Source: a virus
Strand: one strand, 5' to 3'
Virus record (IMG/VR): IMGVR_UViG_3300030419_002355
Location: 1 to 24,902 of that record
Length of the DNA: 24,902 nucleotides
Part shown: positions 9,910-24,197 of the stretch, one piece after another
Layout: each line of letters starts with the position of its first letter
Numbering within the stretch: the first letter of the stretch is position 1
Notes under the pieces: generated by a model
What the model was told of the DNA's origin: nothing
What the model saw: only the letters and a program-made list of their open reading frames with translations
Database searches by the model: none
Made by a program: the position numbers and the translations under genes

Positions 9910-9928
9910 AATTTTTTCCTGTAAGGGT

Positions 9929-10011: not shown

Positions 10012-10041
10012 GAAACTTAATCTGTAAGACCACCTCCTTAA

Positions 10042-10831: not shown

Positions 10832-12622
10832 CTATTTTCGTATGGTATAGATTTTGACAGGTTCAGACTTACCTTTTACAGTTACCTCGTCTAAAAAGTC
10901 GTAGTCATAACCATCAACTAAACTGTACTCAGAAATAATTAATCCTGTATCGTACTCTTTACAACTGCTCTCTAGCCTAGCAGCCAAATTGACGCTATCA
11001 CCAAGCACACTGTAATCGAAACGACTATTACTACCAAAGTTTCCGACGACACAGAGTCCGGTATTGATACCTGCACCTGTGTGAATCTCGTCCAGTCCTT
11101 CTTCTTTAAGTTTTTCATTTAATTCCTCCAACGATTCCCTCATTTCTAGAACCGCTTTAGTTGCATTCTCTTTATGATTCTCATCTTCAAGAGGCGCGCC
11201 CCAAAACGCCATAATACAGTCTCCCATATATTTATCTATTGTACCCCCGTGTTTCATAATTATCTCAGTCTGATTAGTTAAAAAACGATTAATCAGATTA
11301 GTAAGTCCTTGTGGATTCTTCTGGTATTTTTCAGAGATGGGGGTAAATCCTCGTATGTCAGAAAATAAGAAAGTTAGTTGTTTCGTCGACCCACCCAATT
11401 CAAGTAAATTTGGGTTTTTTTGTAATTTTTCAACCAAGTCCCTAGATACATATGTCCCAAATTGTTGTTTAATTTGTAAACGCATGAAATACTGCTGGAG
11501 AAAATTCCTGAAAGTTACAATACTCCAAAACAAAATCGAGATGATTACGATTCCAGAGATGTCCAATAAATAGGAAGATTGATAAGCATACCAGGTACCA
11601 TAAGATAGTCCACCAATAATTGCTAATAGAGTAGGTAAACTAACATATATCCAACCTGCAGTAATTAGAATAAGGAGCAAAGCCAGGACTGCAGCTCCTA
11701 GCTCCGCTGAAACAGCCCAATCTGGTGTAGAAGGGGCTGTACCTTCTATAAGGTTATGTAGTACATTCGCCTGTATCTCATGAGGATATTTTGGTCCTGC
11801 AGGTGTCGGTACTGGGTTAACTACTCCCTCTGCTGTTACTCCTATTATAATAAAAGGAGCTTCAATAGGGTTTCTTAAAAATTCTGCTGCTGTTTGTTTG
11901 TAGAACTTTGTATTCCAGTTAAGATATATTCTCCCATTTGGGTCTGTATTCATTTCTGGATATGCTGGTACTCTAACCCATTCTACTCCTGTTTCATTAG
12001 TACGAATTTGATAACTAATATCATCTACTGCAAGTCTAAGCATTTCTAGTGCAAAACTTGGATATAGTTTATCTTGAACATTAACTACTAGAGGTATTCT
12101 TCTGGTTACTCCATCGATTTCGGGACTTGCTGTAATTAATCCAACCCCATCAGCTGTTGTAGAGAGCATGGGTTCTTGTTTTAAAAGTCCAGGATAGTTA
12201 AAAAGCCACGGAAGTGGGTCTTCTCCAATTTGGGCAGTCCCTATGTGAGGGCCTTGTGTAGTTACTTGACTTGAAGCTGCGTATGCAAGTACTGCTTTTC
12301 TTTCCATAAAAGCATCTGCTAATTCAATATCGTTTTCAGCTCCTCGAATGTCTGGATTAGGCATTAGTACCGTAATACCTGAAACCCCGTGTGTCCTTTC
12401 TACTAGAGTTGCATATAATTCTCTAGGTAATGGATATCCGTTATATGCATCAATGATTTCCTCATCTAAATCAATGATTAAGATATTCTCGTTTTGAACT
12501 TCCTCAGTATTCATTATTAAATAATCAAATACTTTTAATTCTAGTATTTTAAAAGGATAGGGATTCCAGGCCAGTAATAAAACGAAGCCTATTGCTAGTA
12601 GTGCGTTAGTTAGTGTTTTCAA
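10832..12622 (-). CDS. CHASE2-domain class III adenylate/guanylate cyclase
   Basis: The 596-residue membrane protein has a signal anchor (1-20), a periplasmic CHASE2 sensor (about 25-300), two to three membrane spans (about 303-370) and a cytoplasmic class III cyclase domain (about 412-596). Catalytic features are intact: metal-binding Asp422 (FSDIRGFT) and Asp468 (DKYMGD), purine-contacting Lys464 with Ser538, and transition-state Asn545/Arg549 in GDSVNLAARLES. The Lys/Ser pair favours ATP as substrate, so cAMP is the likely product. Translation probably starts at TTG 12622, preceded by AAGGA at good spacing, right after the curlin gene stop. CHASE2 cyclases are typical of bacteria; one in a phage late operon is unusual. 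Next to FecR and curli genes it may signal secretion or surface state. Confidence 0.92.
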   Translation of the reverse strand: MKTLTNALLAIGFVLLLAWNPYPFKILELKVFDYLIMNTEEVQNENILIIDLDEEIIDAYNGYPLPRELYATLVERTHGVSGITVLMPNPDIRGAENDIELADAFMERKAVLAYAASSQVTTQGPHIGTAQIGEDPLPWLFNYPGLLKQEPMLSTTADGVGLITASPEIDGVTRRIPLVVNVQDKLYPSFALEMLRLAVDDISYQIRTNETGVEWVRVPAYPEMNTDPNGRIYLNWNTKFYKQTAAEFLRNPIEAPFIIIGVTAEGVVNPVPTPAGPKYPHEIQANVLHNLIEGTAPSTPDWAVSAELGAAVLALLLILITAGWIYVSLPTLLAIIGGLSYGTWYAYQSSYLLDISGIVIISILFWSIVTFRNFLQQYFMRLQIKQQFGTYVSRDLVEKLQKNPNLLELGGSTKQLTFLFSDIRGFTPISEKYQKNPQGLTNLINRFLTNQTEIIMKHGGTIDKYMGDCIMAFWGAPLEDENHKENATKAVLEMRESLEELNEKLKEEGLDEIHTGAGINTGLCVVGNFGSNSRFDYSVLGDSVNLAARLESSCKEYDTGLIISEYSLVDGYDYDFLDEVTVKGKSEPVKIYTIRK

Positions 12623-13435
12623 TTAATTTCCTTGTGTTACAGTAATATTACAACCGCCAGTAGTTATACAGTTCTGGCTTAGTGTGTAGTTTTGAGTAGT
12701 GTTTCCTCTTTGTAATAAGTCTAAAATAGTCGGCTGACTACCATTAAGTGTGATGGTGGCATTGTGTTCGCCATTGTTTTTCTGACTAATACTGACTTCA
12801 TTGTCGTCATTATAAATATAAAGTGTTAATTCTTTGTCTCCGTTCTGCATTTGCTTTACAAAAACATCATTATTATCTGCATATATAAACGCTTTAATAC
12901 TGTGGTTTATAGAACTGCTATCTTGTTTTTGACTTCCTTTGAATTCATTATCATCTCCATGAATATCTAACTGTACGAAGTTTCCCCCAGGCTCAGTTCC
13001 ATCATAATTCCAATTTGGAGTTAAACTATTACCATTTTCATATCCTTGACCAAAAACAACCTTATTTTCGTCTCCCCAAACATGCATTTGGAAGTCGTTT
13101 TCATTACAACTAGAAGCAGAGCATTTTTGTTTAATTGTCAGTTCATTACCTAAACCATCTACATCACCACCCCAATTATAACCAGACCCCCATATATCAG
13201 TATACCCAATATAATTATTATTTCCATATTGGAATAAATCTAAAGTATTATCATCATGATTGAAGGAGAATCTTATTAAATTATTATGTCCTACTTGGTC
13301 AATTTCAAGACTAAAATTGTCTCCACTTTGTACTTGGTCAATATGTACATGGTTATCGTCTGCTTGTAGCTGTTCGCCAAAAACGAATATTACTACAATA
13401 AATAATATTAAAGCACTTTTTAAAAATTTAATCAT
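12623..13435 (-). CDS. secreted curlin-repeat protein (CsgA/CsgB-like)
   Basis: The 270-residue protein begins with a signal peptide (IKFLKSALILFIVVIFVFG, cleaved near EQLQA). It then has repeated short strands with the curlin pattern IxQxGxxN: HIDQVQSGDNF, EIDQVGHNNL, DLFQYGNNNY, later VSISQKNNGEHN and LDLLQRGNTTQN. Such repeats stack into a beta solenoid and polymerise as amyloid in E. coli curli. Repeats here are separated by irregular acidic segments with Cys pairs. The ATG at 13435 is chosen because the signal peptide begins there and it overlaps the upstream stop as TAATG. It probably leaves the cell through the CsgG pore encoded nearby. Confidence 0.82.
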   Translation of the reverse strand: MIKFLKSALILFIVVIFVFGEQLQADDNHVHIDQVQSGDNFSLEIDQVGHNNLIRFSFNHDDNTLDLFQYGNNNYIGYTDIWGSGYNWGGDVDGLGNELTIKQKCSASSCNENDFQMHVWGDENKVVFGQGYENGNSLTPNWNYDGTEPGGNFVQLDIHGDDNEFKGSQKQDSSSINHSIKAFIYADNNDVFVKQMQNGDKELTLYIYNDDNEVSISQKNNGEHNATITLNGSQPTILDLLQRGNTTQNYTLSQNCITTGGCNITVTQGN

Positions 13436-13599
13436 TATGTTATCCAACAGACTGGGTATACACACCAATAAGGATTAGCAAATCCTAAAAACCATAGAAT
13501 TAGTATCCATAGCGGTATCTGTATCCAAGTCTTCCCTTTAGACCACTCTCTAAATCTTAGAGCATATGGAGCTAGTTTATTAAATAATTTTATTACCAT
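13435..13599 (-). CDS. 54-residue membrane protein
   Basis: The peptide has an N-terminal amphipathic basic part (VIKLFNKLAPYALRFREW) and one hydrophobic Trp-rich span (IQIPLWILILWFLGFA), then a short Cys-containing tail (YWCVYPVCWIT). The stop overlaps the curlin start (TAATG) and the start overlaps the upstream stop by 7 bases, so it is embedded in the operon. It may assist export of the neighbouring curlins. Family not recognised. Confidence 0.65.
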   Translation of the reverse strand: MVIKLFNKLAPYALRFREWSKGKTWIQIPLWILILWFLGFANPYWCVYPVCWIT

Positions 13600-13892
13600 T
13601 TTACTTTATTTGCCCAATAAGCTGCGGACATTTTTCCTTTCTTTATGTTCTTTGCGTGACGAGCCTTAAATGAGGCTCTACGCTTTTTCTGGGCGGCTGA
13701 TTTAGGAGACTTTCCTGCTCCCTTGACTCCTTGTTGTCCAAATCTAATAGTCTTTGTTCTTTTGCCTACTTTTGCGACTACTACATGAGATTTAGTTTTA
13801 TGTTTTGGAGTTCTTTTTGGTTTATTATATCCAGATACTCCAGCTCTCTTAAGTTTACCGTTTCTTTTCTTTCTAGCTCTTTTTCTTGCCAT
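13593..13892 (-). CDS. conserved-type basic phage protein (DUF5872-like)
   Basis: The 99-residue protein is Lys/Arg-rich. It carries the ordered elements GYNKPKRTPKHKTKSHVVV, KTIRFGQQGVKG, RRASFKARHAKNIKKGKMS and AAYWANKVKW. I associate this pattern with a small basic family in marine phages, from memory as DUF5872; the name needs checking. The ATG at 13892 is preferred to one at 13937, since GGGG lies upstream and the longer start would run inside the 28-residue gene. Nucleic acid binding is likely from charge. Confidence 0.75.
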   Translation of the reverse strand: MARKRARKKRNGKLKRAGVSGYNKPKRTPKHKTKSHVVVAKVGKRTKTIRFGQQGVKGAGKSPKSAAQKKRRASFKARHAKNIKKGKMSAAYWANKVKW

Positions 13893-13959
13893 GTTTCTTT
13901 CCCCTTTTCTTCTTAGGTCGTCCTCGACGCTTTCCATATGTTCCTTTACCTTTTGGCAT
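13873..13959 (-). CDS. 28-residue AT-hook-like peptide
   Basis: The peptide is MPKGKGTYGKRRGRPKKKRG followed by a Lys-rich tail. RRGRPKKKRG matches the AT-hook core (RGRP flanked by basic residues), which inserts in the minor groove of AT-rich DNA. A perfect AGGAGG lies four bases before the ATG, one of the strongest ribosome sites in the window. It overlaps the next gene by 20 bases. DNA binding is inferred from the motif. Confidence 0.65.
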   Translation of the reverse strand: MPKGKGTYGKRRGRPKKKRGKKHGKKKS

Positions 13960-13967
13960 ATTTCCTC

Positions 13968-15083
13968 CTAATTAGTCTGTCGTATGATTATACTAATAGA
14001 CTCTCCATCACCTGTTGTGATTATACTTTCTTTTTCATCAGTTATAGTCTGAATTCGAGCATTGGCATCTATAGGCAGTTTAATACTGATTATACCAGTA
14101 ACTTGTCTATAAAACCAAATTTGTCCACTATCATCAATTATAGTATTATATTGAGTTTGTGGGTCAAGTCCTGGTTTTGTTCCTTCAATAGAAACTTGTT
14201 CAAAACCACCACTATCTCTGTTTCTATCAAGTAAGTCTGATTCCTCTATGATTTCTAGTAAGTCTTGTAAAAAGTCTACATCTAATAAATCAATGTCTAA
14301 TTCTGAGAAACTCCAATCTTTATCTTCTTCTAAGTAATCAGTTTCTAATTCATTAAATTCTAGAAAATCTGCAGTTAGTATATTACTTGCACTATTTTCA
14401 GTTCTTACTTCCTCTACTGCTGTTTGTATTTCTGCTGGAGGAGATACAATAAATAAGTTATCAATTTGTGCTACAGTAACATCAGTTAATTGTACAGGTT
14501 TTACAGGGGGACTTGATATAGTTGATACCATAGTAGCCTGAAACGCCTGATTTAAAGTAACTGTACCGCCTTCATTTGTTACTGTTATCTCTCCAGAAGC
14601 GTCTCCATTTGCATCAGGTAAGAGAATTATTAGTGACCTTCCTAATTCATCAATTGTAGTAGTAAAGTCTGTTCCTCTAATTCCTATTTGTGCAGTAGGA
14701 GTTTCGATAGTAATATTTGCTTTGTTCATGTTAGCAGACATACCAGAGGTAAATCGTGCTGTTCCCATAGCAAACTTCATTACCATCTTTGATTTAGATG
14801 GATTAGGGTCATAAATTACTTCGTCAATTAAAACCCTGCTATGTTCGGTTAAACGGAGATTTGAGTCATCAAGAAATTCTACTTTCATTCGTCCGTTGCC
14901 TGTGTTAAGCAAGTCATATAATAATACATCTTGGTCAACTGCGGCAACGAACTCCTGATTATTTCGTGTAAGTGCGCCTTTACCCGTCTGTTCCGTAATA
15001 TCACCAATAGGATTGGCTAATGCTAAACTAGGTACTAGACTAATCGCTAGTATCTTTTTGATTAATTGTAATCGTCGCATCAT
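13968..15083 (-). CDS. secreted FecR-domain protein
   Basis: The protein of about 371 residues begins with a basic signal peptide (RRLQLIKKILAISLVPSLALA). A FecR domain follows: TEQTGKGALTRNNQ, VKVEF-like strand LDDSNLRLTEHSRVLID, the family signature TPTAQIGIRGTDF, then LITVTN-type strands. The C-terminal half is acidic with DLLDVDFL-like repeats. FecR proteins read an outer membrane receptor state and pass it to a sigma factor. A stand-alone periplasmic FecR, without an anti-sigma N-terminus, is common next to CHASE2 cyclases. The start region overlaps the upstream curlin gene by about 44 bases, with no strong ribosome site, so the exact ATG (15083 or 15080) is uncertain. Confidence 0.85.
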   Translation of the reverse strand: MMRRLQLIKKILAISLVPSLALANPIGDITEQTGKGALTRNNQEFVAAVDQDVLLYDLLNTGNGRMKVEFLDDSNLRLTEHSRVLIDEVIYDPNPSKSKMVMKFAMGTARFTSGMSANMNKANITIETPTAQIGIRGTDFTTTIDELGRSLIILLPDANGDASGEITVTNEGGTVTLNQAFQATMVSTISSPPVKPVQLTDVTVAQIDNLFIVSPPAEIQTAVEEVRTENSASNILTADFLEFNELETDYLEEDKDWSFSELDIDLLDVDFLQDLLEIIEESDLLDRNRDSGGFEQVSIEGTKPGLDPQTQYNTIIDDSGQIWFYRQVTGIISIKLPIDANARIQTITDEKESIITTGDGESISIIIRQTN

Positions 15084-15756
15084 CTGAAGTAATATCAAGA
15101 TTAATCACACCTGAACAAGAAGTAACACCCTGAGGGCAGCTTCCTGACTGCTGTATAATATCAATATCTGCATCGTCCCCGTTAAACTCTGCTATTAGGA
15201 TTTGGTCCTCATCTTTTTGTTGAGTATTAATGTTATTACCGTCACCAGTAATATCCCATTCCCATTTAACACTATCTGCATCTACTAATGTAGTAAATAT
15301 ATTAGTACCTCCAGTAAGAGTTAAATCATAGTTAAAGCTTTCGGAAGATTGGTTATACCCCAAATCAAAGTCCCACTCATTTGAATCCCCTGTAACATCT
15401 AAATCTAAGTCCAGACTATCTGCAGAGCCAGTATATCCAATGTTCCAATCAAATATGTTACTGTCCCCTGTAAATACCATGTCTATATTAGCTGAGTCTA
15501 ATACGATAGGTCCAAATAATTGGTTACTATTTCCTATTTGGTCTAAATTAAAGGTTATGTCACTACCTGTGATTTCCATATCAGTAGCACAAGCTCCTGA
15601 TGCAATAGTTCCACAAAATTTGTTTCCATAACCTATCTGGTCAATTGTCAAAGTCAAAGTATCACCCTCTTGTTCAAGAAAAATCTCGTTATCGGTTGAT
15701 TGTGCGAAAATTGACACAGAAAGGAAAAGTGCAAATATAGTTAAATATTTATTCAC
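15040..15756 (-). CDS. secreted curlin-like repeat protein 2
   Basis: The 238-residue protein has a signal peptide (NKYLTIFALFLSVSIFAQS). Curlin-like strands follow: LTIDQIGYGNKF, FNLDQIGNSNQL, NINTQQKDEDQ, IDIIQQSG and ITINQKD. Between them are Asp/Ser-rich units of the form DLDVTGDSNEWDFDLGY. GTG at 15756 is chosen: GGGAG lies six bases upstream and the signal peptide begins there. It overlaps the csgG stop by 8 bases. Being directly after csgG, it is the most likely secreted substrate. Its Cys pairs could form disulphides. It is longer and more acidic than E. coli CsgA. Confidence 0.8.
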   Translation of the reverse strand: MNKYLTIFALFLSVSIFAQSTDNEIFLEQEGDTLTLTIDQIGYGNKFCGTIASGACATDMEITGSDITFNLDQIGNSNQLFGPIVLDSANIDMVFTGDSNIFDWNIGYTGSADSLDLDLDVTGDSNEWDFDLGYNQSSESFNYDLTLTGGTNIFTTLVDADSVKWEWDITGDGNNINTQQKDEDQILIAEFNGDDADIDIIQQSGSCPQGVTSCSGVINLDITSDDATITINQKDTSD

Positions 15757-16618
15757 TATTTTCTCCCTTATGCTCTTGGATATTCCAAAAGCCTCTTTCG
15801 TCACCTTGATAAATAAAGGCGACAACTGCAGCTTCAATCGCTGCACGGGTTGCAACAGTAACGCTTTCGTTCTCCGCAACTCCGTCTTCTATTTCTACTA
15901 GTTGAGTATCCATATCGACAAATTTAAATACATCGAAACCTCCACCAACTGATAGAATAGTCTTCTTGGCCTGAACATTTAACAAAATTTCTCCTGTTAA
16001 AGTGCTTATGCCCCTTAGACTTACTGTGACCACATCTCGTCTATATTGAGTTGACCTGCCCACCCCTAAAGTCCTTGCTCCTCGTCCGCCAGATTCTATA
16101 TTAGAGTCATATCCTATGATACCACCTTCTATAATTATTCCTGCGAAGAGTAGTGGCTGTATGCCTTTGTTCTCTGTTTCATCGCTTTCCTCTCTAGTAC
16201 TTCTAACAATTTGTCTTTCTCGTACTAGATGGTCTATTTGAGCTCTTTCAACTACACGGAACCATGTTCCATTTCCTGCAGTTTTTAAAGCATCAATAAG
16301 TAATTCTGTTCCACCTTGGGTTACTGCAGTACTAAAGTCTGCTAAATTATCTCTACGCTTTCTTTGTCCAGTTAAATCATTAAATCCATAAACTGCAACT
16401 ATTGGCATTTTTTCCGCTGGGGGTAAATTTAATAGTCTTTCGTAAGTAGGAAGTTCAACTATCTCTGGTCCTTCAACACAGGTAAATGGAATTGCCTTTT
16501 CAACCATAGTTTTTACATCAACTATGTCAGGGTCACAATTAGTGTCGTCCCTATCCATTCTAGGAACGCTTGCACACCCCGCTATTAAAAATACTAGCAA
16601 AATGGCTAGTAGCCTCAT
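15749..16618 (-). CDS. csgG: CsgG-family curli secretion lipoprotein
   Basis: The 289-residue outer membrane lipoprotein has a lipobox (LIAGC, lipidated Cys15). CsgG signatures are clear: ADFSTAVTQGGTELLIDAL, WFRVVERAQIDHLVRERQIVR, IIIEGGIIGYDSN, YRRDVVTVSLRGISTLTGEILLNV and TRAAIEAAVVAF. In E. coli nine copies form a pore for curli subunits, with a constriction of Tyr51, Asn55 and Phe56. Here Phe56 is kept (Phe95), but the Tyr and Asn positions align with acidic Asp90 and Asp94, so the channel may suit a different substrate. A strong GGAGG lies six bases before the ATG, which overlaps the csgF stop (TAATG). Confidence 0.92.
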   Translation of the reverse strand: MRLLAILLVFLIAGCASVPRMDRDDTNCDPDIVDVKTMVEKAIPFTCVEGPEIVELPTYERLLNLPPAEKMPIVAVYGFNDLTGQRKRRDNLADFSTAVTQGGTELLIDALKTAGNGTWFRVVERAQIDHLVRERQIVRSTREESDETENKGIQPLLFAGIIIEGGIIGYDSNIESGGRGARTLGVGRSTQYRRDVVTVSLRGISTLTGEILLNVQAKKTILSVGGGFDVFKFVDMDTQLVEIEDGVAENESVTVATRAAIEAAVVAFIYQGDERGFWNIQEHKGENSE

Positions 16619-17100
16619 TAGAATCCTCCAGTACCGATTGGGATTGTGATTACTGTTTCACTTCCCTCGCTGTCAGTTATAGTCATGATTATAACTTCTA
16701 CACATACTCCATCTTCCCCGCATTGCTCGGTTCTTTGATAGGTAATAGTATTCCCTTCTAGGGTAAATGAGCCTGAATAACTAGACTCTTCATTTCCGAA
16801 CATATTATCTACTAATTGTTTTGATAATTGTGCGTATATTCTTGATTCTAAGTTTCGAATGAACTTAGCTAAAGTTGTATTTTCTAATGCTCTCTGTTCA
16901 GCTTTTAGTGCTGCTTCGATGTCATCTTGTAATTTATCTCGTCTTGATTTTTCTTGGTTTTCAATCGTTAAATAGTGAGCAGAAGTACCTACTCCACTAA
17001 AAGACGGATTTTTGAATTCGTGTGTAATTTCGTCGCTTAAGACTAATGGTGTAAAGAAGAAGATAATTGCTATCCATCTACTTGTCTCTTTTCTTTTCAT
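16618..17100 (-). CDS. csgF: CsgF-like curli assembly factor
   Basis: The 160-residue protein has a signal peptide (about 1-22). Its mature N-terminus, HEFKNPSFSGVG, matches the CsgF element FRNPNFGGN that threads into the CsgG pore. A helical part (LAKFIRNLESRIYAQLSKQLVDNM) and C-terminal strands (FTLEGNTITYQ, EVIIMTITD, TVITIPIGTGGF) follow, as in CsgF. It caps CsgG and links secretion to nucleation on the cell surface. It immediately precedes csgG. There is no CsgE or CsgB-type dedicated nucleator in the window. Confidence 0.85.
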   Translation of the reverse strand: MKRKETSRWIAIIFFFTPLVLSDEITHEFKNPSFSGVGTSAHYLTIENQEKSRRDKLQDDIEAALKAEQRALENTTLAKFIRNLESRIYAQLSKQLVDNMFGNEESSYSGSFTLEGNTITYQRTEQCGEDGVCVEVIIMTITDSEGSETVITIPIGTGGF

Positions 17101-17329: not shown

Positions 17330-17606
17330 CTAACCTACCGTCCTCGATAAAATTTTCAGCTCTCGCAATTCTGTCTAAATCTGGTGTAAGTTCGAGAGCT
17401 GCGCTTACACTAGTGTCTAATCTAATTATGTCATTGTTCATAGTTTTCACACGAGTGATAAGACTATTCGCAAATCCTTCAAGTGTCTTTACTTGCCCAA
17501 CTACTCCACTCATTATTTGCTTCATAATTGTAAAAATAAAAACACCTGCTACCAGGGCTCCAGCTATAGGGGCACCTACTTGTGCTATTAAGTTCCAAAT
17601 ATCCAT
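17313..17606 (-). CDS. small membrane protein, BhlA/holin-like (paralogue 2)
   Basis: The 97-residue protein has an N-terminal span (QVGAPIAGALVAGVFIFTIM) and a coiled segment (ITRVKTMNNDIIRLDTSVSAAL). It aligns with its downstream neighbour along both parts, with MNNDIIRL matching LDNDMIRL. It starts at TAATG with iscA and overlaps paralogue 1 by 17 bases. Two similar one-span proteins may form a hetero-oligomer, as holin/antiholin pairs do; this is inference. Confidence 0.65.
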   Translation of the reverse strand: MDIWNLIAQVGAPIAGALVAGVFIFTIMKQIMSGVVGQVKTLEGFANSLITRVKTMNNDIIRLDTSVSAALELTPDLDRIARAENFIEDGRLDVRRD

Positions 17607-17923
17607 TAGAATCCTACACTGACACCACAGCCACAGCTTGCCTGTTCTTGTGGATTAATAAACTTAAACTGTTCATTAACTCCATCAACAACCCAATCTA
17701 TTGTCATACCTTGTATATAAGGGCCTGACACCGGGTCTATATTAAATTTAATTTCGCCATAATCGATAACAAAATCATTTTCTTTTGGTTCTTTACAGTA
17801 GTCAAATATATACTCATATCCAGCACAGCCACCGCCAGTTAATCCTATTCTAAAAGCATAGGTTTTCTCACGGGAGGCTCTTTCTACTAATTTGGAATAA
17901 GCTTCATTTGTTACTTCAATCAT
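17606..17923 (-). CDS. A-type iron-sulfur carrier protein (IscA/ErpA family)
   Basis: The 105-residue protein has the three conserved Cys of A-type carriers: Cys33 in TGGGCAGYEY and Cys97/Cys99 in SCGCG near the C-terminus. The fold strands (FRIGLTGGG, FNIDPVSGPYIQGMTIDWV) are intact. It accepts Fe-S clusters from IscU or passes them to apo-proteins. The ATG at 17923 is used because the upstream TTG would lie deep in iscU. It overlaps iscU by 8 bases, as in a real Isc operon. Cyanophages carry A-type proteins, but pairing with IscU is rarer. Confidence 0.9.
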   Translation of the reverse strand: MIEVTNEAYSKLVERASREKTYAFRIGLTGGGCAGYEYIFDYCKEPKENDFVIDYGEIKFNIDPVSGPYIQGMTIDWVVDGVNEQFKFINPQEQASCGCGVSVGF

Positions 17924-18317
17924 TCTGTTTTCGTTCCCAATCAAGTATTGCTTCTCTTATAGCTGATTCAGCTAGTACTGAGCAGTGCAATTTAATTGGA
18001 GGCAATTGCAATGCTTCTGCAATTTCTTTGTCTTTTATTTCTCTAGCCTCTGCTAAAGTTCTGCCTTTTAGCATATCGACGAACATTGTGGAACTCGCGA
18101 TTGCTGAACCACAACCATATGTTTTGAACTTAACATCTTCTATAATTTCGTCTTTGTTAAGTTTAATCTGAAGTCTCATGACATCACCACACGCTGGTGC
18201 TCCTACTTGTCCAGTAGCTACAGCGGGGTCTTTAGGGTCAAATCTACCTACGGAAAATTGTCCGGGAGCGTTTAGTACTTCTTCGAATCTTTTTACGACC
18301 TCTTTGCTATATGCCAT
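17916..18317 (-). CDS. iscU: IscU Fe-S cluster scaffold
   Basis: The 133-residue scaffold has all ligand residues: Cys43 with Asp45 (GAPACGDV), Cys69 (TYGCGSAIASS), His111 and Cys112 (LHCSVLAE). The LPPIK at 105-109 matches the LPPVK motif recognised by the HscA chaperone. It begins MAYSKEVVKRFE. It should build a cluster from host IscS sulfur and hand it to the IscA-like protein next door. Length is typical. No IscS, HscA or HscB is in this window, so host partners would be needed. Confidence 0.93.
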   Translation of the reverse strand: MAYSKEVVKRFEEVLNAPGQFSVGRFDPKDPAVATGQVGAPACGDVMRLQIKLNKDEIIEDVKFKTYGCGSAIASSTMFVDMLKGRTLAEAREIKDKEIAEALQLPPIKLHCSVLAESAIREAILDWERKQND

Positions 18318-19184: not shown

Positions 19185-19217
19185 CTCTAAACATTTGTGT
19201 ATTGTTTAGAAAAAGAT

Positions 19218-19223
19218 TATAAT
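19218..19223 (+). promoter_or_regulatory. -10 element for the rightward operon
   Basis: TATAAT lies six bases before the ATG at 19230. A weak TTGTGT is 17 bases upstream. The parS-like site covers the region just upstream of this promoter, so ParB binding could regulate it. Confidence 0.45.
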
Positions 19224-19229
19224 TATATT

Positions 19230-19508
19230 ATGGAAAACAAAAAAGGAATGAAAATGAAATTACTAGAAGAAAGAAAATTGATTTTAACTGAATGGGATAA
19301 TTCAGAAGAAAGCCAAGAAAACTATTTCAAGGCAATAGCTGAATTAAAGAAAGAGAATATTCCATTTAAAATTGTTAAGAGAAGAATGATTACAGAATAT
19401 GCCAAGAAATTATATTTTACTTATTCGATCATTTTAGACACGATTTTAATATTGGGAATTATTGTAGCTTTCCTTAATCTTGAAAAATTAATTAAGGTGT
19501 TTTCATAA
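19230..19508 (+). CDS. small protein with C-terminal membrane anchor
   Basis: The 92-residue protein has a charged N-terminal half (LLEERKLILTEWDNSEESQEN) and a C-terminal hydrophobic span (FTYSIILDTILILGIIVAFL). The ATG at 19230 is directly downstream of TATAAT; a second ATG at 19254 has AAAGGA upstream and could be the real start. It ends in TAATG with the next gene. It opens the rightward operon. Function unknown. Confidence 0.6.
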   Translation: MENKKGMKMKLLEERKLILTEWDNSEESQENYFKAIAELKKENIPFKIVKRRMITEYAKKLYFTYSIILDTILILGIIVAFLNLEKLIKVFS

Positions 19509-19588
19509 TGGGTATTGAATGGGATTTACTAATTGGAATAATCGCTTTCAATACCTTAATTCTATATTTAATTTGGGGGGCAAGATGA
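19508..19588 (+). CDS. 26-residue transmembrane micropeptide
   Basis: The peptide MGIEWDLLIGIIAFNTLILY plus LIWGAR is almost wholly one membrane span. It starts in TAATG with the previous gene and ends in ATGA with the HAD gene, so the frame is fixed by both sides. The tight coupling supports a translated unit, though it may mainly link translation. Confidence 0.5.
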   Translation: MGIEWDLLIGIIAFNTLILYLIWGAR

Positions 19589-20073
19589 TAACAAGACTTT
19601 ACAATCCTAATCCTATAATCGCTATCTATGATTTAGATAACACAATCATTGATAGCGAACATAGGCAACTTTCAAATGATGATGGCTCAATCAATCTTGA
19701 ACATTGGTTTGAGAATTGCACAGAAGAAAAAATAAATAAAGATACATTACTGCCTTTATATAATAAATTGGTTAAGCAATATAAAGAGGGCAACACAATC
19801 ATTCTATGCACAGCTAGAAACATGGGTAAATATGATTATGAATATCTTTATAAAAATAATATTTGGCACGATAAAATCATATCAAGACCTAAAGACTGCA
19901 CAACTAAAGATTATATTTTAAAGGCACAACAATTAAAATATCTATTCAATCTAAAACAATATGCCAAGATACAAAAAGAATTTTATGACGATAATACCGA
20001 TAACCTAAAAGCATTATTCAAATTAGGGGCAAAGGTATTCAATGCCATAGAATTAAATGAGGAAATGAAATGA
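19585..20073 (+). CDS. HAD-superfamily phosphatase-like protein
   Basis: The 162-residue protein has HAD motifs in order: motif I YDLDNT with nucleophile Asp16 and Asp18, motif II Thr76 in IILCTAR, and motif IV acidic pair in YDDN (Asp135/Asp136). Such enzymes remove phosphate, for example 3'-phosphates from DNA or RNA (T4 PseT-like), or nucleotides. The ATG at 19585 follows GGGGGG at the right distance. Its end overlaps the PPK2 gene by 4 bases, so the two are probably made together. Substrate not predictable. Confidence 0.82.
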   Translation: MITRLYNPNPIIAIYDLDNTIIDSEHRQLSNDDGSINLEHWFENCTEEKINKDTLLPLYNKLVKQYKEGNTIILCTARNMGKYDYEYLYKNNIWHDKIISRPKDCTTKDYILKAQQLKYLFNLKQYAKIQKEFYDDNTDNLKALFKLGAKVFNAIELNEEMK

Positions 20074-20708
20074 ATGAATTAGAAATACAACAGGCACGAC
20101 TAAACCGAATATTAAAAAAGGATTTTGGAAAGGTTGCCGTTATCCTAGAGGGTAGAGATACTGCTGGAAAAACAGGAACAATCAGAACGCTAACACACTA
20201 TATGCCAATAGATAAATTCTCAATTCATCTATCCACTAAACCAAGCCAAGCAACAATGAATAATTGGTTTAGATTTTGGACAAATAAATTAGAAATGGCT
20301 AATAATAAAATGGTTATCTTTGATAGGTCATGGTATTCAAGGGGTTTAGTCCAAGCAATTAATGGGTGGTGTTCAGAGGAACAATATGCACACTTCATGG
20401 AAAATGTGCAATCATGGGAAGAAAAGAAAGAAGATATAAGATACATTAAATTTTGGTTATCCATATCAGAAGAAACACAAAAAAGACTAATTGAGAAAAG
20501 GGAAAATTCACCATTAACAAATTGGAAACTATCACCGAATGACAGACTTGCTCTATCCTACTTTGACAAAATGACTATCTACAAAGAAAGGGTAATTACT
20601 TCCACTAAATATTGGAATGTAATTGACTACAACGACAAAAAGAAAGGGCAACTAGAATTAATCACAACTTTAAATAACATATTAGAAAAGGGGTTAAAAA
20701 ATGACTAA
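20070..20708 (+). CDS. polyphosphate kinase 2 (PPK2) family protein
   Basis: The 212-residue protein matches the PPK2 P-loop fold. Walker A is LEGRDTAGKTG (GRD 28-30, Lys34). Walker B FDRSWYSRG is at 84-92. Lid elements follow: IKFWLSISEETQKRLIEKR and NWKLSPNDRLALSYFDKM, with the family triad WKLSPxD. PPK2 enzymes transfer phosphate between polyphosphate and nucleotides (ADP/GDP to ATP/GTP, or AMP to ADP). GKTG replaces the more usual GKGG. The protein is at the short end of the family but has all core elements. A PPK2 in a phage early operon is unusual and could raise NTP supply from host polyphosphate. It overlaps genes on both sides. Confidence 0.88.
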   Translation: MNELEIQQARLNRILKKDFGKVAVILEGRDTAGKTGTIRTLTHYMPIDKFSIHLSTKPSQATMNNWFRFWTNKLEMANNKMVIFDRSWYSRGLVQAINGWCSEEQYAHFMENVQSWEEKKEDIRYIKFWLSISEETQKRLIEKRENSPLTNWKLSPNDRLALSYFDKMTIYKERVITSTKYWNVIDYNDKKKGQLELITTLNNILEKGLKND

Positions 20709-20946
20709 ACAAATAGGACATAAAGAATTTATGAGATTAAGACATAAACTAGAAAAGAAAAGAACACAGATAAAAATTAACAAGGAAGAATGGATAGCCG
20801 ACTTGGGATCTGGTTATTTAATATCAGATATGACAAAGGAACAGGTAAGGATTTTTAAAAATTTTGAAAAGGCAATTAATTCCATTAATGCCAAAATAAG
20901 AACATTAAAGACTTGGGAAAAATCCCAAGATCTAAATGTAGGTTAA
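20701..20946 (+). CDS. hypothetical small protein
   Basis: The 81-residue, basic, helical protein (KEFMRLRHKLEKKRTQIKIN, QVRIFKNFEKAINSINAKI) has AAGGGG before its ATG. It overlaps the PPK2 gene by 8 bases. No motif recognised. Confidence 0.6.
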   Translation: MTKQIGHKEFMRLRHKLEKKRTQIKINKEEWIADLGSGYLISDMTKEQVRIFKNFEKAINSINAKIRTLKTWEKSQDLNVG

Positions 20947-20989
20947 AAGATATGACCTTTATGTATATCTTAAATTTAAAGGAAAAAAT

Positions 20990-21175
20990 ATGAATACTTT
21001 AAAAAAAGCGAATAAGCCGAAATTCTTTAAAGATGAAACCAAAGAACAAATGGTTAGAATTATTAGAGAGCAATCTGGCTTAAAACTTCCTGCACTTGTA
21101 AGAGCTACTAAAGATGATATAGAAGAACTTGCAAAGGCATTGGAAGTGAATGCAAATTATGAGGGTGGCAAATAA
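20990..21175 (+). CDS. hypothetical small protein
   Basis: The 61-residue protein starts MNTLKKANKPKFFKDETKEQ and has a helical middle (EQMVRIIREQSGLKLPALV, DDIEELAKALEV). AAAGGA lies upstream of the ATG. Its last base is shared with the next ATG (TAATG). Family not recognised. Confidence 0.6.
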   Translation: MNTLKKANKPKFFKDETKEQMVRIIREQSGLKLPALVRATKDDIEELAKALEVNANYEGGK

Positions 21176-22020
21176 TGTCACCTTCTAATTTGAATAATGT
21201 AGCGTGTGTGATAGATACAGAATGCACATACATATCAAGAACGCCCCGAATGGTTTATCATTTTGGGGCAACTATTGGTAATCTTGATAATGATAATAAA
21301 TTTGATGTGATAACAATGGATTATTATGTCAAAGAAATTATTGAAGATATTGGTATGTTTCTTCACACTAATTCTAAAGGGAATGATTATAGCTATAATA
21401 AAAATATGGCTCATTCTTGGAAAGACGCTATTAATAATCCACACAAGGTTAAATCTTGGAAAAGCATAATTAAGGAATGGAAAAAATTGATGAAAATTCA
21501 TAATGTTTCATATCTTACTTCATACAATTTCAATTTCGATCTTGGTGTGGGTGATAAAATTGGCACTATAAGGAAAACTCATTCCCAATTAACAGATGAA
21601 ACTTTTTATCTGCCTAGAGGGGTTGAGTATTTCTGCCTTATGGATATTTGTGCTAATCTTCTGATGAATAAACCATATTTCCATTGGTTAGATAATCTTT
21701 CAGATGAAGAACTTGCTCAAATGACTACTGAAAAAGGCAATAATAAATATTCTGCTGAAAGCGTGAATAGGTATATTAACAAAGACCTATGGTATGCTGA
21801 ACAGCACACAGCAAAAAGAGATAGTTTGCTTGAATATGGTATATTGCTCTATGTATGGAAAAAATATAAAGCAATCATTAAGAAAAATTTTGTTAATGAT
21901 GTTCGCTTTGTTCATTTCCTAGATGTAGCCACAGGGTTATCAACTGCCGAGAAAATGAGGAAAAGGTTGAATAAACCTATTCCTAAAAATTCTAAACAAA
22001 TGCAATTAAAGGGGGTATAA
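21175..22020 (+). CDS. DEDDh exonuclease-like protein
   Basis: The 281-residue protein has the acidic set of DnaQ-like 3'-5' exonucleases: Asp14/Glu16 in VIDTECTY, Asp122 in TSYNFNFDLGVG, and His211/Asp216 in HTAKRDSLLEYG. The spacing is the DEDDh subgroup. These enzymes remove nucleotides from 3' ends of DNA or RNA. In a phage early operon it may act in DNA repair, replication or host nucleic acid breakdown. No polymerase domain is present, so it is not a polymerase exonuclease segment. Confidence 0.75.
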   Translation: MSPSNLNNVACVIDTECTYISRTPRMVYHFGATIGNLDNDNKFDVITMDYYVKEIIEDIGMFLHTNSKGNDYSYNKNMAHSWKDAINNPHKVKSWKSIIKEWKKLMKIHNVSYLTSYNFNFDLGVGDKIGTIRKTHSQLTDETFYLPRGVEYFCLMDICANLLMNKPYFHWLDNLSDEELAQMTTEKGNNKYSAESVNRYINKDLWYAEQHTAKRDSLLEYGILLYVWKKYKAIIKKNFVNDVRFVHFLDVATGLSTAEKMRKRLNKPIPKNSKQMQLKGV

Positions 22021-22023
22021 CTT

Positions 22024-22233
22024 ATGCGACAATTAGAATTAAAATTTAATCCGAAACCTAACCATAACATTCCAGATTTTAGGGAATGGTTATATAGGGT
22101 TAATGATGAAAGAAGATTATGGAAAGAAAAGCCATACAGAATAAAAGAGGGATTAGCTAAATATAATCGCTTGATTGATGATGGCTTTACTTTTCCAGAT
22201 TGGAATAAATATGAGAAAGGGGGTGAAAAATGA
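22024..22233 (+). CDS. hypothetical small protein
   Basis: The 69-residue protein (MRQLELKFNPKPNHNIPDFR, then WLYRVNDERRLWKEKPYR) is basic and aromatic-rich with no membrane segment. GGGGG lies upstream of the ATG. It overlaps the next gene as ATGA. Function unknown. Confidence 0.6.
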   Translation: MRQLELKFNPKPNHNIPDFREWLYRVNDERRLWKEKPYRIKEGLAKYNRLIDDGFTFPDWNKYEKGGEK

Positions 22234-22427
22234 AAAACTTTATGTTTGGTTTTACTCTTTCCCTTTCTGGTTTTGTGTTCTTCTACTTCACCGACCATTT
22301 AGGAACTGTTGCAACAGGTGTTGCTATGTTGCTGATGTTGTTTGGTGTTGCACTTGGAATGTCAATGTCATTGGTTTTAGAAGAACTTGGATATTGGCTA
22401 AATTCAAGGGGGGTCAGAAGAAGATGA
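22230..22427 (+). CDS. small two-span membrane protein
   Basis: The 65-residue protein has two hydrophobic spans (MFGFTLSLSGFVFFYFTDHL and TVATGVAMLLMLFGVALGM) and a basic end (SRGVRRR). It is in an overlap chain (ATGA on both sides). Early membrane proteins of phages often act in superinfection exclusion; no evidence favours this beyond position. Confidence 0.6.
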   Translation: MKNFMFGFTLSLSGFVFFYFTDHLGTVATGVAMLLMLFGVALGMSMSLVLEELGYWLNSRGVRRR

Positions 22428-22636
22428 AAATTGAAAGATTAATATTCATAATTGCTATGGTAATAATCTTTTTAGGGCTACAGGGTATCTTACCGATACC
22501 CTTCCCTTTTTCCCTTTGGTTTATTATCACAGGAAATATTTTGATGATTTGGTATTCTTCATTCACTAAAAACACAGAATTATTAATAATCACTTTATTA
22601 ATGATGACTGCCCAAGCTACACAGGTCATGCTATGA
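22424..22636 (+). CDS. small multi-span membrane protein
   Basis: The 70-residue protein starts MKIERLIFIIAMVIIFLGL and has two more hydrophobic stretches (FSLWFIITGNILMIWYSS, LLIITLLMMTAQATQVML). It starts inside the previous stop (ATGA) and ends with ATGA into the next gene. It makes a membrane pair with the previous protein. Function unknown. Confidence 0.6.
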   Translation: MKIERLIFIIAMVIIFLGLQGILPIPFPFSLWFIITGNILMIWYSSFTKNTELLIITLLMMTAQATQVML

Positions 22637-22803
22637 GAAGAAAATCAGAAAAGGAAATTATGTTTGAATATGGAAAAAAGGCATTAATAAAAGGTGATTT
22701 CCAATATATGACTGTTCCACAATATAATAAATTGATTATCCAATTAGCAAAAGAAAAAAGAGAAAAAGAAAAATTATCTAAAAGCCAAAAATCATATCCT
22801 TGA
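22633..22803 (+). CDS. hypothetical small basic protein
   Basis: The 56-residue protein (MRRKSEKEIMFEYGKKALIK, then MTVPQYNKLIIQLAKEKREK) is the last gene of the rightward operon. It overlaps the previous gene and ends just before the terminator. It is charged and helical; no family recognised. Confidence 0.6.
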   Translation: MRRKSEKEIMFEYGKKALIKGDFQYMTVPQYNKLIIQLAKEKREKEKLSKSQKSYP

Positions 22804-22870: not shown

Positions 22871-22976
22871 TGTGGATAAATCTGTTAATAAACGCACACT
22901 TATCCACAAACTTCCACAGATCCAACGCACAAAATAATCCCACTTTATCCACAGCTTATCCACAGAGTTATCCACA
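22871..22976. other. DnaA-box cluster, putative replication origin (left part)
   Basis: Five exact TTATCCACA boxes lie at 22871-22879 (minus), 22900-22908, 22945-22953, 22956-22964 and 22968-22976 (plus). The last three are spaced 11 and 12 bases, about one helical turn. Such clusters are bound by DnaA at chromosomal, plasmid and some phage origins. An AT-rich stretch follows at 23228-23270. No coding sequence occupies this segment. Confidence 0.75.
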
Positions 22977-22979
22977 ATT

Positions 22980-22998
22980 GTAAATGATAATCATTCTC
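22980..22998. promoter_or_regulatory. Fur-box-like site
   Basis: GTAAATGATAATCATTCTC matches the 19-bp Fur consensus (GATAATGATAATCATTATC) at 16 positions and keeps the inverted repeat AATGAT-A-ATCATT. It sits between the DnaA boxes and the GC hairpin, in the path of the promoter at 23198. Iron-Fur binding here is a prediction. Confidence 0.5.
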
Positions 22999-23003
22999 AT
23001 TTA

Positions 23004-23022
23004 GGCGCGGCAGCGCCGCGCC
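23004..23022. repeat. perfect GC-rich hairpin
   Basis: GGCGCGGC and GCCGCGCC pair completely around AGC. No T-run follows, so it is not a standard intrinsic terminator. It could end or stabilise the minus-strand transcript from 23198-23226. Confidence 0.6.
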
Positions 23023-23093
23023 GCAGTGCAGTTTCGAAACGAAGTGTTACATCTACCTGCGCCAGAGTGCCAAAGTGAAGTGGAAAAGTGATG
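23004..23093. repeat. repeat module B (paralogue of 23866-23976)
   Basis: The module has, in order, a GC hairpin, AGTGCAGTTTCGAAACGAA, ACA, TGCGCC, AGTGC and AAGTGATG. It matches module A element by element, including the identical 15-mer CAGTTTCGAAACGAA. Two degenerate 13-base units lie at 23063-23088. Confidence 0.65.
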
Positions 23094-23197
23094 TCTTTCT
23101 GCCAGGATATGTGTTTATTTTGGACATTTAGCGGGTCTCTCAGCGTATTAATACATTAGTCGGCGAAGCCGAGCCAGCCCGCCCGCCTCACCCTATT

Positions 23198-23226
23198 ATT
23201 ATAGCAGAATTTTTCTCGTTTGTCAA
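23198..23226 (-). promoter_or_regulatory. consensus promoter for RNA B
   Basis: TTGACA, 17 bases, TATAAT on the minus strand, preceded by an A/T-rich TTTTTTCAAAAAATCTC. No gene lies downstream before the convergent operon's terminator. Confidence 0.85.
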
Positions 23227-23260
23227 GAGATTTTTTGAAAAAAATTGAATTATTTTCAGA

Positions 23261-23326
23261 TAAAAAAAATCCGACATTTGTTGCTTCAGACTTTTCCCTC
23301 ATCATACTACACAACATCTGTCGGAT
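23261..23326 (-). terminator. leftward intrinsic terminator
   Basis: Read on the minus strand, ATCCGACA and TGTCGGAT form an 8-bp stem extended inward by TGTTG/CAACA across a 2-base mismatch, with a 28-base loop. Eight Ts follow. It ends the transcript of the 49-residue gene and separates it from promoter B. Confidence 0.85.
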
Positions 23327-23413
23327 TAATTCGCTTTCGCTTCGTCAGTTTAGACACTTGTCGCGGGTGTGGTCAGAACTTTGAGTTATAAACGAGTTCT
23401 TGGCGTTCAGAAT

Positions 23414-23429
23414 TGTTCCATGTGGAACT
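23414..23429. promoter_or_regulatory. parS-like site 2
   Basis: TGTTCCATGTGGAACT shares 15 of 16 bases with site 1 at 19169, including the same TG centre where classical parS has CG. It touches the stop codon of the 49-residue gene. The region 23327-23413 otherwise holds no gene I can support. Confidence 0.55.
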
Positions 23430-23578
23430 TAAAGACTTAGCAATTTCTTGATGGTCACTTTGTTGCTTCTCTCTAGGCTATCAAGTTCGCCTTTGTTTAG
23501 AGAGAATTTTTCTTCAACTTGTCTGACCAATGCTACTTTAGTTAATTCAACTTTTTTAGTTTCTTTCACTTTTTGCAT
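23429..23578 (-). CDS. 49-residue protein in origin-like region
   Basis: The protein is MQKVKETKKVELTKVALVRQ, then a short helical part (EEKFSLNKGELDSLERSN) and TIKKLLSL. The SLNKGELDSL segment looks like a small helical turn of a DNA-binding protein, but this is a weak hint. AAGGAG nine bases upstream supports ATG 23578. An in-frame ATG at 23599 directly after TATAAT could give a leaderless longer form. It is the only gene in a 1.4-kb noncoding region, so a regulator of replication or the local RNAs is a fair guess. Confidence 0.55.
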   Translation of the reverse strand: MQKVKETKKVELTKVALVRQVEEKFSLNKGELDSLERSNKVTIKKLLSL

Positions 23579-23606
23579 TTTTTCGTTCTCCTTAATCATG
23601 TATATA

Positions 23607-23634
23607 ATTATACTGATTTTTTGTCCCATGTCAA
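23607..23634 (-). promoter_or_regulatory. promoter of the 49-residue gene
   Basis: TTGACA, a 16-base spacer and TATAAT. The ATG at 23599 lies seven bases after TATAAT. Confidence 0.8.
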
Positions 23635-23662
23635 TAGGAAAATCACATTTTTTGAAAAAAAC

Positions 23663-23682
23663 TTATCCACAGGTTATCCACA
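23663..23682. other. two DnaA boxes (right part of origin-like region)
   Basis: Exact TTATCCACA boxes at 23663-23671 and 23674-23682 (plus strand) are 11 bases apart. They lie between two tandem promoters that read toward the 49-residue gene, so DnaA could also control that gene. Confidence 0.7.
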
Positions 23683-23696
23683 GCCAAATCGCGCCG

Positions 23697-23725
23697 ATTA
23701 TACCACACTCTCCTAGATTTGTCAA
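23697..23725 (-). promoter_or_regulatory. second consensus promoter upstream of the 49-residue gene
   Basis: TTGACA, 17 bases, TATAAT on the minus strand. Its transcript would cross the two DnaA boxes before reaching the 49-residue gene. The adjacent 23726-23825 is AT-rich and holds no gene I can support. Confidence 0.82.
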
Positions 23726-23825
23726 GAGAAAATTTAAATTTTTTTCAACTTTTTATAAACTCGTGTCTTTTATCTATTTGATACCTTAAGTTATCGCTTT
23801 TTGCCCTATTTTTTCGCATTTTTCC

Positions 23826-23858
23826 TTAAAAATACCCGTATAAAGCGCTTTTGCGGGT
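23826..23858 (-). terminator. candidate terminator of RNA A
   Basis: On the minus strand ACCCG and CGGGT pair around an inner AAA-GCGC-TTT, followed by ATTTTT. It lies about 180 bases from the predicted start of RNA A. Confidence 0.5.
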
Positions 23859-23865
23859 GTTTGGG

Positions 23866-23976
23866 GCGCTTTGCGCCGACCAAAGTACAGTTTCGAAACG
23901 AAATATTTTACACCCGCGCCGAAGTGCGAATTCGAAGTACTAAAACGAAGTACCAAATCGAAGTGCTAAAGTGATG
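23866..23976. repeat. repeat module A (paralogue of 23004-23093)
   Basis: It has the same order as module B: GC hairpin GGCGC-TTT-GCGCC, AGTACAGTTTCGAAACGAA, ACA, CGCGCC, AGTGC and AAGTGATG. The 15-mer CAGTTTCGAAACGAA at 23888-23902 is identical to 23029-23043. Confidence 0.65.
23920..23971. repeat. four 13-bp iterons
   Basis: CGAAGTRC-NAAWN units repeat with an exact 13-base period; GAAGTRC starts at 23921, 23934, 23947 and 23960. Direct repeats next to DnaA boxes are typical of Rep-bound iterons, but no Rep gene is seen here. Confidence 0.75.
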
Positions 23977-24014
23977 AAAAACACCCGCAGCGGGTATATA
24001 ATTATCTTAATCAT

Positions 24015-24043
24015 ATTATATCAGAAGTTTTTGCGGGTGTCAA
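24015..24043 (-). promoter_or_regulatory. consensus promoter for RNA A
   Basis: TTGACA, 17 bases, TATAAT on the minus strand. The octamer ACACCCGC overlaps the -35 element. Confidence 0.83.
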
Positions 24044-24077: not shown

Positions 24078-24169
24078 TTTTGCGAAGGTTTGACACGAAG
24101 ATGTGAGGTTTCGCGTCCCGCCCCCCGAAGTTAGACTGTGATTTTTTCCTAGAAAATTCGAATTTTTTC

Positions 24170-24197
24170 TTGACATTTATGAAAAAAGCATTATAAT
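24170..24197 (+). promoter_or_regulatory. promoter for the 24206 gene
   Basis: TTGACA, 16-base spacer, TATAAT, then eight bases to the ATG at 24206. It has the same TTTTTTCTTGACA context as the other promoters. Confidence 0.85.

What the first reader, a model, noticed from the sequence alone, without database searches (positions are those of the whole stretch)
23004..24043. Two paralogous promoter-plus-repeat modules: candidate ncRNA pair
Modules A and B share at least six ordered elements including CAGTTTCGAAACGAA. Each lies about 90-130 bases downstream of a perfect minus-strand promoter and contains no open frame. Predicted RNAs are about 180 and 188 bases, both ending near a GC-rich hairpin. 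They may be regulatory RNAs, replication primers, or transcribed iteron arrays. I know no described RNA family with this layout.
Basis: partly seen in the sequence, partly recalled or inferred. Interest (0 to 1): 0.7.

Follow-up and report, generated by a model that had tools for sequence, protein, structure and literature searches.

The report
T5-type nick-site repeats, not ncRNAs
The two look-alike stretches are most likely DNA control sites of an uncultured relative of phage T5: short repeats that run up to a predicted single-strand nick site, in the region that corresponds to T5's enigmatic 'injection stop signal', rather than a new pair of regulatory RNAs.

Summary
In detail: modules A (about 23004-23191) and B (about 23826-24008) are paralogous (local score 42; best of 1000 shuffled pairs 28), each behind a 12/12 sigma-70-type minus-strand promoter. 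The ncRNA reading is not supported: no Rfam match, mean folding z -0.45 over 24 loci, window included, almost no covariation in a 10-row alignment, and a terminator-like hairpin near the module end only in the window and 3 of 17 relatives scanned.

The modules resemble parts of the T5 injection stop signal (ISS): 13-nt units leading into the T5 nick consensus R/GCGCRGG. The window's only two such 8-mers lie one in each module, both on the minus strand. In 30 loci (window included) the 8-mer occurs 22 times on that strand in 25 kb of this region and 0 times in 277 kb outside. DnaA boxes and Fur-box-like palindromes accompany it, as in T5 relatives. New is a lineage-wide variant: tandem units, duplicated modules, and near-consensus promoters reading through the predicted nick sites. 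Nicking, terminal repeats and a stop function are unproven; T5 A1 was not found.

The parts
24015..24043 (-). Promoter of module B (TTGACA-17-TATAAT); many relatives have TTGACACCCGC..TGTGATATAMT here
   Evidence: a promoter-like match left of the GC-rich element in 38 of 39 loci, near-identical ones included; L134 has only 54 bp there
23981..23997 (-). Terminator-like hairpin about 25 nt after the predicted start of module B (ATACCCGCTGCGGGTGT, then T run)
23921..23976 (-). Module B array of 13-nt units (minus strand ..TTTNGCACTTCR..)
   Evidence: only its last unit (23924) is within 3 mismatches of the T5 unit
23913..23920 (-). Predicted T5-type nick site of module B, G/GCGCGGG
   Evidence: consensus; nicking not tested
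23888..23902 (+). CAGTTTCGAAACGAA, variant unit, copy B
23828..23858 (-). Terminator-like hairpin (ACCCGC..CGGGTATTTTT) after module B; in the window, not general in relatives
   Evidence: by eye
23697..23725 (-). Second minus-strand 12/12 promoter; -10 followed by CGGCGCG, then DnaA boxes
23663..23682 (+). Two DnaA boxes TTATCCACA
23607..23634 (-). 12/12 promoter in front of the small ORF
23429..23629 (-). Conserved small ORF (66 aa or shorter), no PHROG match
23268..23327 (-). Terminator-like inverted repeat after the small ORF
   Evidence: I12
23198..23226 (-). Promoter of module A
23064..23093 (-). Module A array (CATCACTTTTCCACTTCACTTTGGCACTCT)
23056..23063 (-). Predicted T5-type nick site of module A, G/GCGCAGG
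   Evidence: nicking not tested
23029..23043 (+). CAGTTTCGAAACGAA, variant unit, copy A; continues on the minus strand as CTGCACTGCGGCGCGG
23004..23022 (.). GC-rich inverted repeat GGCGCGGCAGCGCCGCGCC
22983..23001 (.). Fur-box-like palindrome AATGATAATCATTCTCATT, as in the T5 ISS
22871..22976 (.). Five DnaA boxes (22871 minus; 22900, 22945, 22956, 22968 plus)
24107..24131 (.). Conserved GC-rich element GGTTTCGCGTCCCGCCCCCCGAAGT between the divergent promoters
   Evidence: (18-base core exact in 36 viral contigs)
24170..24197 (+). Divergent plus-strand 12/12 promoter of the next genes

Best explanation
The modules are two copies of a T5-type nick-site unit in the region of an environmental T5-like phage that corresponds to the T5 injection stop signal. 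SHOWN by sequence: on the minus strand an array of 13-nt units (..TTTNGCACTTCR..) runs into R/GCGC[AG]; a like unit next to the box occurs in T5 (GTCGGATTTGCACAAAA/GCGCAGGG, an annotated major nick), in Eos and Slocum, and in looser form in PR1, PG07 and VspSw_1; DnaA boxes and AATGAGAATCATT-type palindromes accompany it. INFERRED: a phage nicking system, positioned by a protein that binds the units, cuts the minus strand 5' of GCGC in each module, and the region acts as a control site for DNA entry, terminal repeats or replication. INFERRED, specific to this lineage: host RNA polymerase fires from a near-consensus promoter through each array and its nick site, so that any RNA is a leader or by-product of site activation.
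For: RGCGCRGG, a pattern taken from T5, occurs 22 times on the minus and 2 on the plus strand in 25,360 bp of this region, and 0 and 4 times in 276,793 bp outside it, over 30 loci; shuffled regions give 0.8 minus-strand hits on average, maximum 4 in 200. 20 of the 22 are listed behind a CAC-type unit; L127's is not, and L133 was not in that call. The window has two, one per module, both minus (the number alone is not rare, window shuffles average 0.5, maximum 3; the placement is the point). T5 unit at up to 3 mismatches, minus strand: 32 in the region against 2.8 in shuffles, maximum 9; 81 in eleven times more DNA outside. CACT spacing on the minus strand peaks at 13 nt (37 pairs); the plus strand has 3 pairs within 40 nt. 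T5: nine units, palindromes at five places, one DnaA box with three variants, and the nick lie within 9437-10490. Eos and Slocum have unit then exact 8-mer; PR1, PG07 and VspSw_1 have GCAC, 4-8 nt, then GCGCAG. DnaA boxes: 37 inside, 11 outside; palindrome: 9 inside, 2 outside. Terminase 48%, portal 38%, capsid 33% identical to T5. Contig ends cluster just left of the element: 15 of 36 within 1100 bp, 3.6 expected, 0 on the right, as a terminus, repeat or nick would cause.
Against: No nick was observed; it is read from sequence. 13 of 30 loci have no exact 8-mer on the minus strand; eight of these have under 500 bp of the region, but L117, L118, L124, L136 and L140 have more and carry variants. 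In the window only the last unit of module B is within 3 mismatches of the T5 unit, and none within 2. Three of the four T5 nicks checked have no 13-nt unit in front, so unit and box are separable; T5 also has a plus-strand RGCGCRGG inside its ISS at 10070 and unit copies elsewhere (12154, 78951). My1 has units but no RGCGCRGG beside them. T5 A1 (single sequence and four-member profile) and the T5.108 putative origin-binding protein were not found in five related contigs of 40-105 kb, while both were found in the three named phages searched, so two-step transfer is not established. RGCGCRGG is not confined to this region in whole contigs (G001 has 4). In seven relatives where I could read both (L116, L117, L118, L124, L125, L128, L138) the DnaA boxes lie on the other side of the units than in T5; the window has DnaA boxes on both sides of module A. 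The T5 ISS shows no near-consensus promoter, only a weak match at 10194 on the other strand; Slocum has one match of at most 2 mismatches on the unit strand.
Confidence: 0.66

Rival explanations
1. A pair of regulatory ncRNAs (about 180 and 188 nt), transcribed from the two promoters and acting by structure or by repeated protein-binding sites.
For: Promoters are near-consensus and conserved; module B of the window folds better than its 200 shuffles (z -3.4) and ends in a terminator-like hairpin.
Against: Module A z is -1.2; mean z over 24 loci is -0.45; covariation is negligible in ten; no Rfam match up to E 5. In a crude terminator scan of 18 loci, 3 relatives have a hairpin near the module end, 12 have their first hit at +406 or later, 2 have none, and the window's hit is at +25, before the units. 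The conserved box matches a T5 DNA nick consensus on a fixed strand.
Confidence: 0.1
2. A DnaA-dependent replication origin whose iterons bind a phage initiator; transcription from the module promoters primes or activates it.
For: Seven exact TTATCCACA boxes within 22871-23682 and none elsewhere in the window, iteron-like 13-nt spacing, divergent promoters.
Against: No initiator gene identified; the T5.108 putative origin-binding protein was not found in five related contigs; cumulative GC skew has its minimum near 19 kb, where gene direction switches, not here. It does not explain the strand-specific GCGCRGG, but is compatible with it.
Confidence: 0.15
3. A packaging or terminal-repeat boundary site: the conserved GC-rich element and modules mark where concatemers are cut.
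For: Contig ends cluster here; T5 units straddle the end of its terminal repeat at 10219; My1's repeat, measured from the spacing of its two A1 copies, ends at TTCGGGGGGCGG/AAAA, which resembles the element read on the minus strand.
Against: The similarity is short (16 of 22 bases), in opposite orientation, and absent from the T5 and PR1 ends; contig breaks may come from strain variation or from the paralogous modules themselves.
Confidence: 0.09

Closest known systems
Phage T5 injection stop signal region (AY543070, 9140-10149) and its major nick at 9748/9749
   Same: Non-coding; DnaA-type boxes; repeated AATGAGAATCATT-type palindromes; 13-nt units ending in GCAC on one strand; a unit next to R/GCGCRGG on that strand; in a phage with related terminase, portal and capsid
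   Different: The environmental phages have units in tandem at 13-nt spacing ending at the box, two modules with a small gene between, near-consensus promoters reading through them, and no A1 found; the T5 units are 25-137 nt apart with one gap of 344 nt
ISS-like regions of Eos, Slocum, PR1, PG07, VspSw_1 and My1 (Demerecviridae)
   Same: DnaA boxes in all six; a GCAC unit adjoining RGCGCAG in five of six; the palindrome in four of six by the exact pattern
   Different: The PG07 unit differs (GAGTGCGGATTCTAT, read by eye); My1 lacks the box beside the units; no paired near-consensus promoters were found in the stretches scanned, though Slocum has one weaker promoter match on the unit strand
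Site-specific nicks of phage tf and of the phiKMV group (PMC3517423, passages read)
   Same: Strand-specific consensus boxes of unknown function
   Different: Other consensus sequences; in tf 14 sites over the genome

Membership tests
T5-type single-chain interruption site | R/GCGCRGG consensus | tested here: met
   One per module in the window; 17 of 30 loci have at least one exact copy on the minus strand in the region
T5-type single-chain interruption site | All sites on one strand | tested here: inconclusive
   22 minus, 2 plus in the region, both minus in the window; over whole contigs the bias is not clear, and T5 itself has 5 matches on the other strand
T5-type single-chain interruption site | A ligase-sealable nick in virion DNA | not testable with these tools
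   No virion DNA or reads
T5 injection stop signal | Non-coding region with repeats, palindromes and DnaA boxes (description: PMC13250531, passages read) | tested here: met
   the window region also holds one small ORF
T5 injection stop signal | Lies at the inner end of a long terminal repeat with pre-early genes A1 and A2 | tested here: inconclusive
   A1 found in 0 of 5 related contigs, none of known completeness; A2 not tested; contig ends cluster here but no coverage data
T5 injection stop signal | Halts DNA transfer after the first step | not testable with these tools
   Needs infection experiments
Structured ncRNA family | Conserved structure with covariation | tested here: not met
Structured ncRNA family | Match to a described family | tested here: not met
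   0 Rfam matches up to E 5
DnaA-dependent origin | Replication starts here | not testable with these tools
   DnaA boxes are present

The most novel reading that the evidence does not exclude
A transcription-coupled nick site: host RNA polymerase fires from a near-consensus promoter through each unit array, on the strand to be nicked, and the resulting non-template-strand nick or R-loop either starts replication or holds the incoming genome, so that the modules are RNA-activated entry or replication gates duplicated on either side of a small regulator gene.
Probability: 0.17. Interest if true: 0.8.

Novelty: new variant of a known kind. Interest (0 to 1): 0.56.

Why it matters
What T5's nicks do is an old open question: PMC3517423 (passages read) says their biological significance has not been revealed, and PMC13250531 (passages read) says the mechanism of second-step transfer remains poorly understood. 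Environmental relatives that keep units, nick box, DnaA boxes and palindromes show what is constrained, and suggest a testable rule: GCAC-type units set 2-8 nt before R/GCGC. It also warns that conserved repeats behind strong phage promoters need not be RNA genes.

Tried and rejected
Rfam at permissive threshold: nothing. tRNA: none. Structured RNA: rejected for lack of a shared fold or covariation. Coding: rejected, the 13-nt period is not a multiple of three and no ORF of 60 aa or more overlaps a module. Host-derived repeat: a scan of genome contigs for AGTGCAGTTYCGAARCGA gave 8 scattered hits, no more than chance by my own estimate. The 15-mer scan of viral contigs gave 17 stretches, six of this group; the 18-mer scan gave 12, six of this group, the other six (L105-L110) not examined. 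Distant blastn against named phages found only short matches outside the T5 group. Neighbour-protein scans gave few relatives. Rho-binding (rut) array: considered because of the 13-nt spacing, set aside since the units are sequence-specific; not tested. T5 A1 and T5.108: not found in five related contigs. A strict unit-plus-box pattern matched 6 of 12 records and, as I wrote it, could not match the T5 ISS site; a DnaA-pair pattern matched 3 of 12, none of the five environmental contigs, whose boxes are spaced differently. My1 terminus resemblance to the GC-rich element: kept only as a lead. Literature: 'injection stop signal' is in 1 paper of the library and 'single-chain interruptions' in 3; a search for at least four of T5-like, marine, metagenom, nick, terminal repeats, Demerecviridae held 62 papers, of which I saw the listing of 12 and none on such sites by title or abstract start; further listings. 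Passages of PMC8108384, PMC3326045 and PMC8624392 say nothing of ISS repeats or nick sites. Davison's T5 review is not held.

Full report
Setting. The window is a 24,902-bp virus record. Its late genes are T5-like: terminase 48%, portal 38% and capsid 33% identical to T5. tblastn of the terminase against named phages matched 1219 records; the 20 listed are at 48-50% identity, and the six whose taxonomy I opened are Demerecviridae. Late genes run on the minus strand up to about 18,963, plus-strand genes fill 19,197-22,803, and the finding lies in the following stretch, left of the next plus-strand genes. In T5 the terminal repeat with the ISS lies between the late block and the early genes if the two repeats are thought of as one (my inference).

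Observation. The two modules are real paralogues (score 42, shuffle maximum 28 of 1000). Both promoters are 12/12. There are in fact four 12/12 minus-strand promoters (24043, 23725, 23634, 23226) and two plus-strand ones (24170, 24473) in 2.3 kb.

Relatives. A pattern scan with the variant unit gave 12 viral contigs, six of them of this group; a scan with a GC-rich element next to promoter B gave 36. In 38 of 39 loci examined, near-identical ones included, a promoter-like match lies on the minus strand left of the element; L134 has too little sequence. Eleven loci were printed over 900-1900 bp; by eye all eleven have both modules, and in ten the small ORF reads on the minus strand between them (in L112 it is on the other strand).

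Anatomy. Read on the minus strand, each module is a run of units with ..TTTNGCACTTCR.. ending at GGCGC[AG]; one search lists 61 contexts from 26 loci, about six of which look unrelated. CACT spacing peaks at 13 nt (37 pairs, then 30 at 8 nt, which with 5 nt makes up 13), while the plus strand has 3 pairs within 40 nt.

Link to T5. The T5 record marks a major single-chain interruption at 9748/9749 on the complement, inside the ISS, and gives the consensus NPu-pGCGCN for others; PMC3517423 (passages read) gives R/GCGCRGG. The T5 strand reads GTCGGATTTGCACAAAA/GCGCAGGG. The same unit occurs nine times in 9753-10490, all on that strand; single copies occur elsewhere, e.g. 12154 and 78951. Relative L128 has GTCGGTTTTCCACTCTG/GCGCAGGA. 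Eos and Slocum have unit and exact box; PR1, PG07 and VspSw_1 have GCAC, 4-8 nt, then GCGCAG; My1 has units without the box beside them. The palindrome AATGNNAATNATTNNCATT is found in 7 of 12 records, among them T5, My1, Eos and both Vibrio phages, and AATGATAATCATTCTCATT lies at 22983 in the window.

Statistics. In 30 loci RGCGCRGG occurs 22 times on the minus and 2 on the plus strand in 25,360 bp, and 0 and 4 times in 276,793 bp outside. Dinucleotide-shuffled regions give 0.8 on the minus strand, maximum 4 in 200. 17 of 30 loci have at least one; 13 have none, eight of them with under 500 bp of the region. For the window alone the count of two is not rare (shuffle mean 0.5, maximum 3); its force is that one lies in each module, behind the array. 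Over whole large contigs the 8-mer is not restricted to this place. The reversed-pattern control gave 1 and 1 inside and 31 and 5 outside; the outside excess probably comes from the GC-rich element, which contains that string. The T5 unit at up to 3 mismatches: minus strand 32 inside, 81 outside; reversed control 2 and 18.

RNA tests. Module B of the window folds well (z -3.4), A does not (z -1.2, 27 of 200 shuffles as good). Over 24 loci including the window the mean is -0.45, the lowest being the window (-2.6) and L083 (-2.5). RNAalifold on 10 of them gives -3.29 kcal/mol and one pair with a double change. In a crude terminator scan of 18 loci the first hit lies near the module end in 3 (L121, L129, L136), at +406 or later in 12, nowhere in 2, and at +25 in the window; the scan missed the window's later hairpin, read by eye. 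In the loci also printed the late hit lies after the small ORF. So B may often be a 5' leader rather than a separate RNA.

Contig ends. Of 36 contigs, 10 end within 500 bp and 15 within 1100 bp left of the element (1.65 and 3.63 expected), none within 2000 bp on the right, where 6.6 were expected. This fits a terminus, nick or repeat, but strain variation or the paired modules could also break assembly.

Against. A1 and T5.108 were not found in five related contigs, although found in all three named phages searched (profile), nicks were not observed, three of four T5 nicks examined lack the unit, and the window's own units are only loosely like T5's. I therefore claim resemblance and probable homology of the site, and only infer nicking and a stop or entry function.

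Noticed in passing
window 10832-17100: Phage-borne curli-type genes: CsgG (15749-16618), CsgF (16618-17100), a curlin-repeat protein (12623-13468), a FecR-domain protein and a CHASE2 adenylate/guanylate cyclase.
   Followed up: partly
window 17606-18317: Two iron-sulphur cluster assembly proteins side by side: Fe-S_biosyn type and NifU_N type.
   Followed up: partly
window 22983-23001 and T5 9552-9715: Fur-box-like palindromes sit in ISS-like regions of T5 and relatives, possibly sites for the host iron regulator; the Fur label is recalled, not tested.
   Followed up: partly
window 24107-24131: GC-rich element whose 18-base core is exact in 36 viral contigs; function unknown.
   Followed up: partly
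window 20070-20708: Polyphosphate kinase 2 gene; in L083 a similar gene, judged by eye, lies directly right of the element instead.
   Followed up: no
L117, L122, L128, L138 in this region: Palindrome GTAAGTGCTTAC: 5 copies in 4 of 30 loci, none outside the region (loci as read).
   Followed up: no
window 24000-24011 and relatives: Short inverted repeat (AATAAGNNTTATT type, changed on both sides in L115 and L122) at the predicted start of module B transcripts; weak in the window itself.
   Followed up: no
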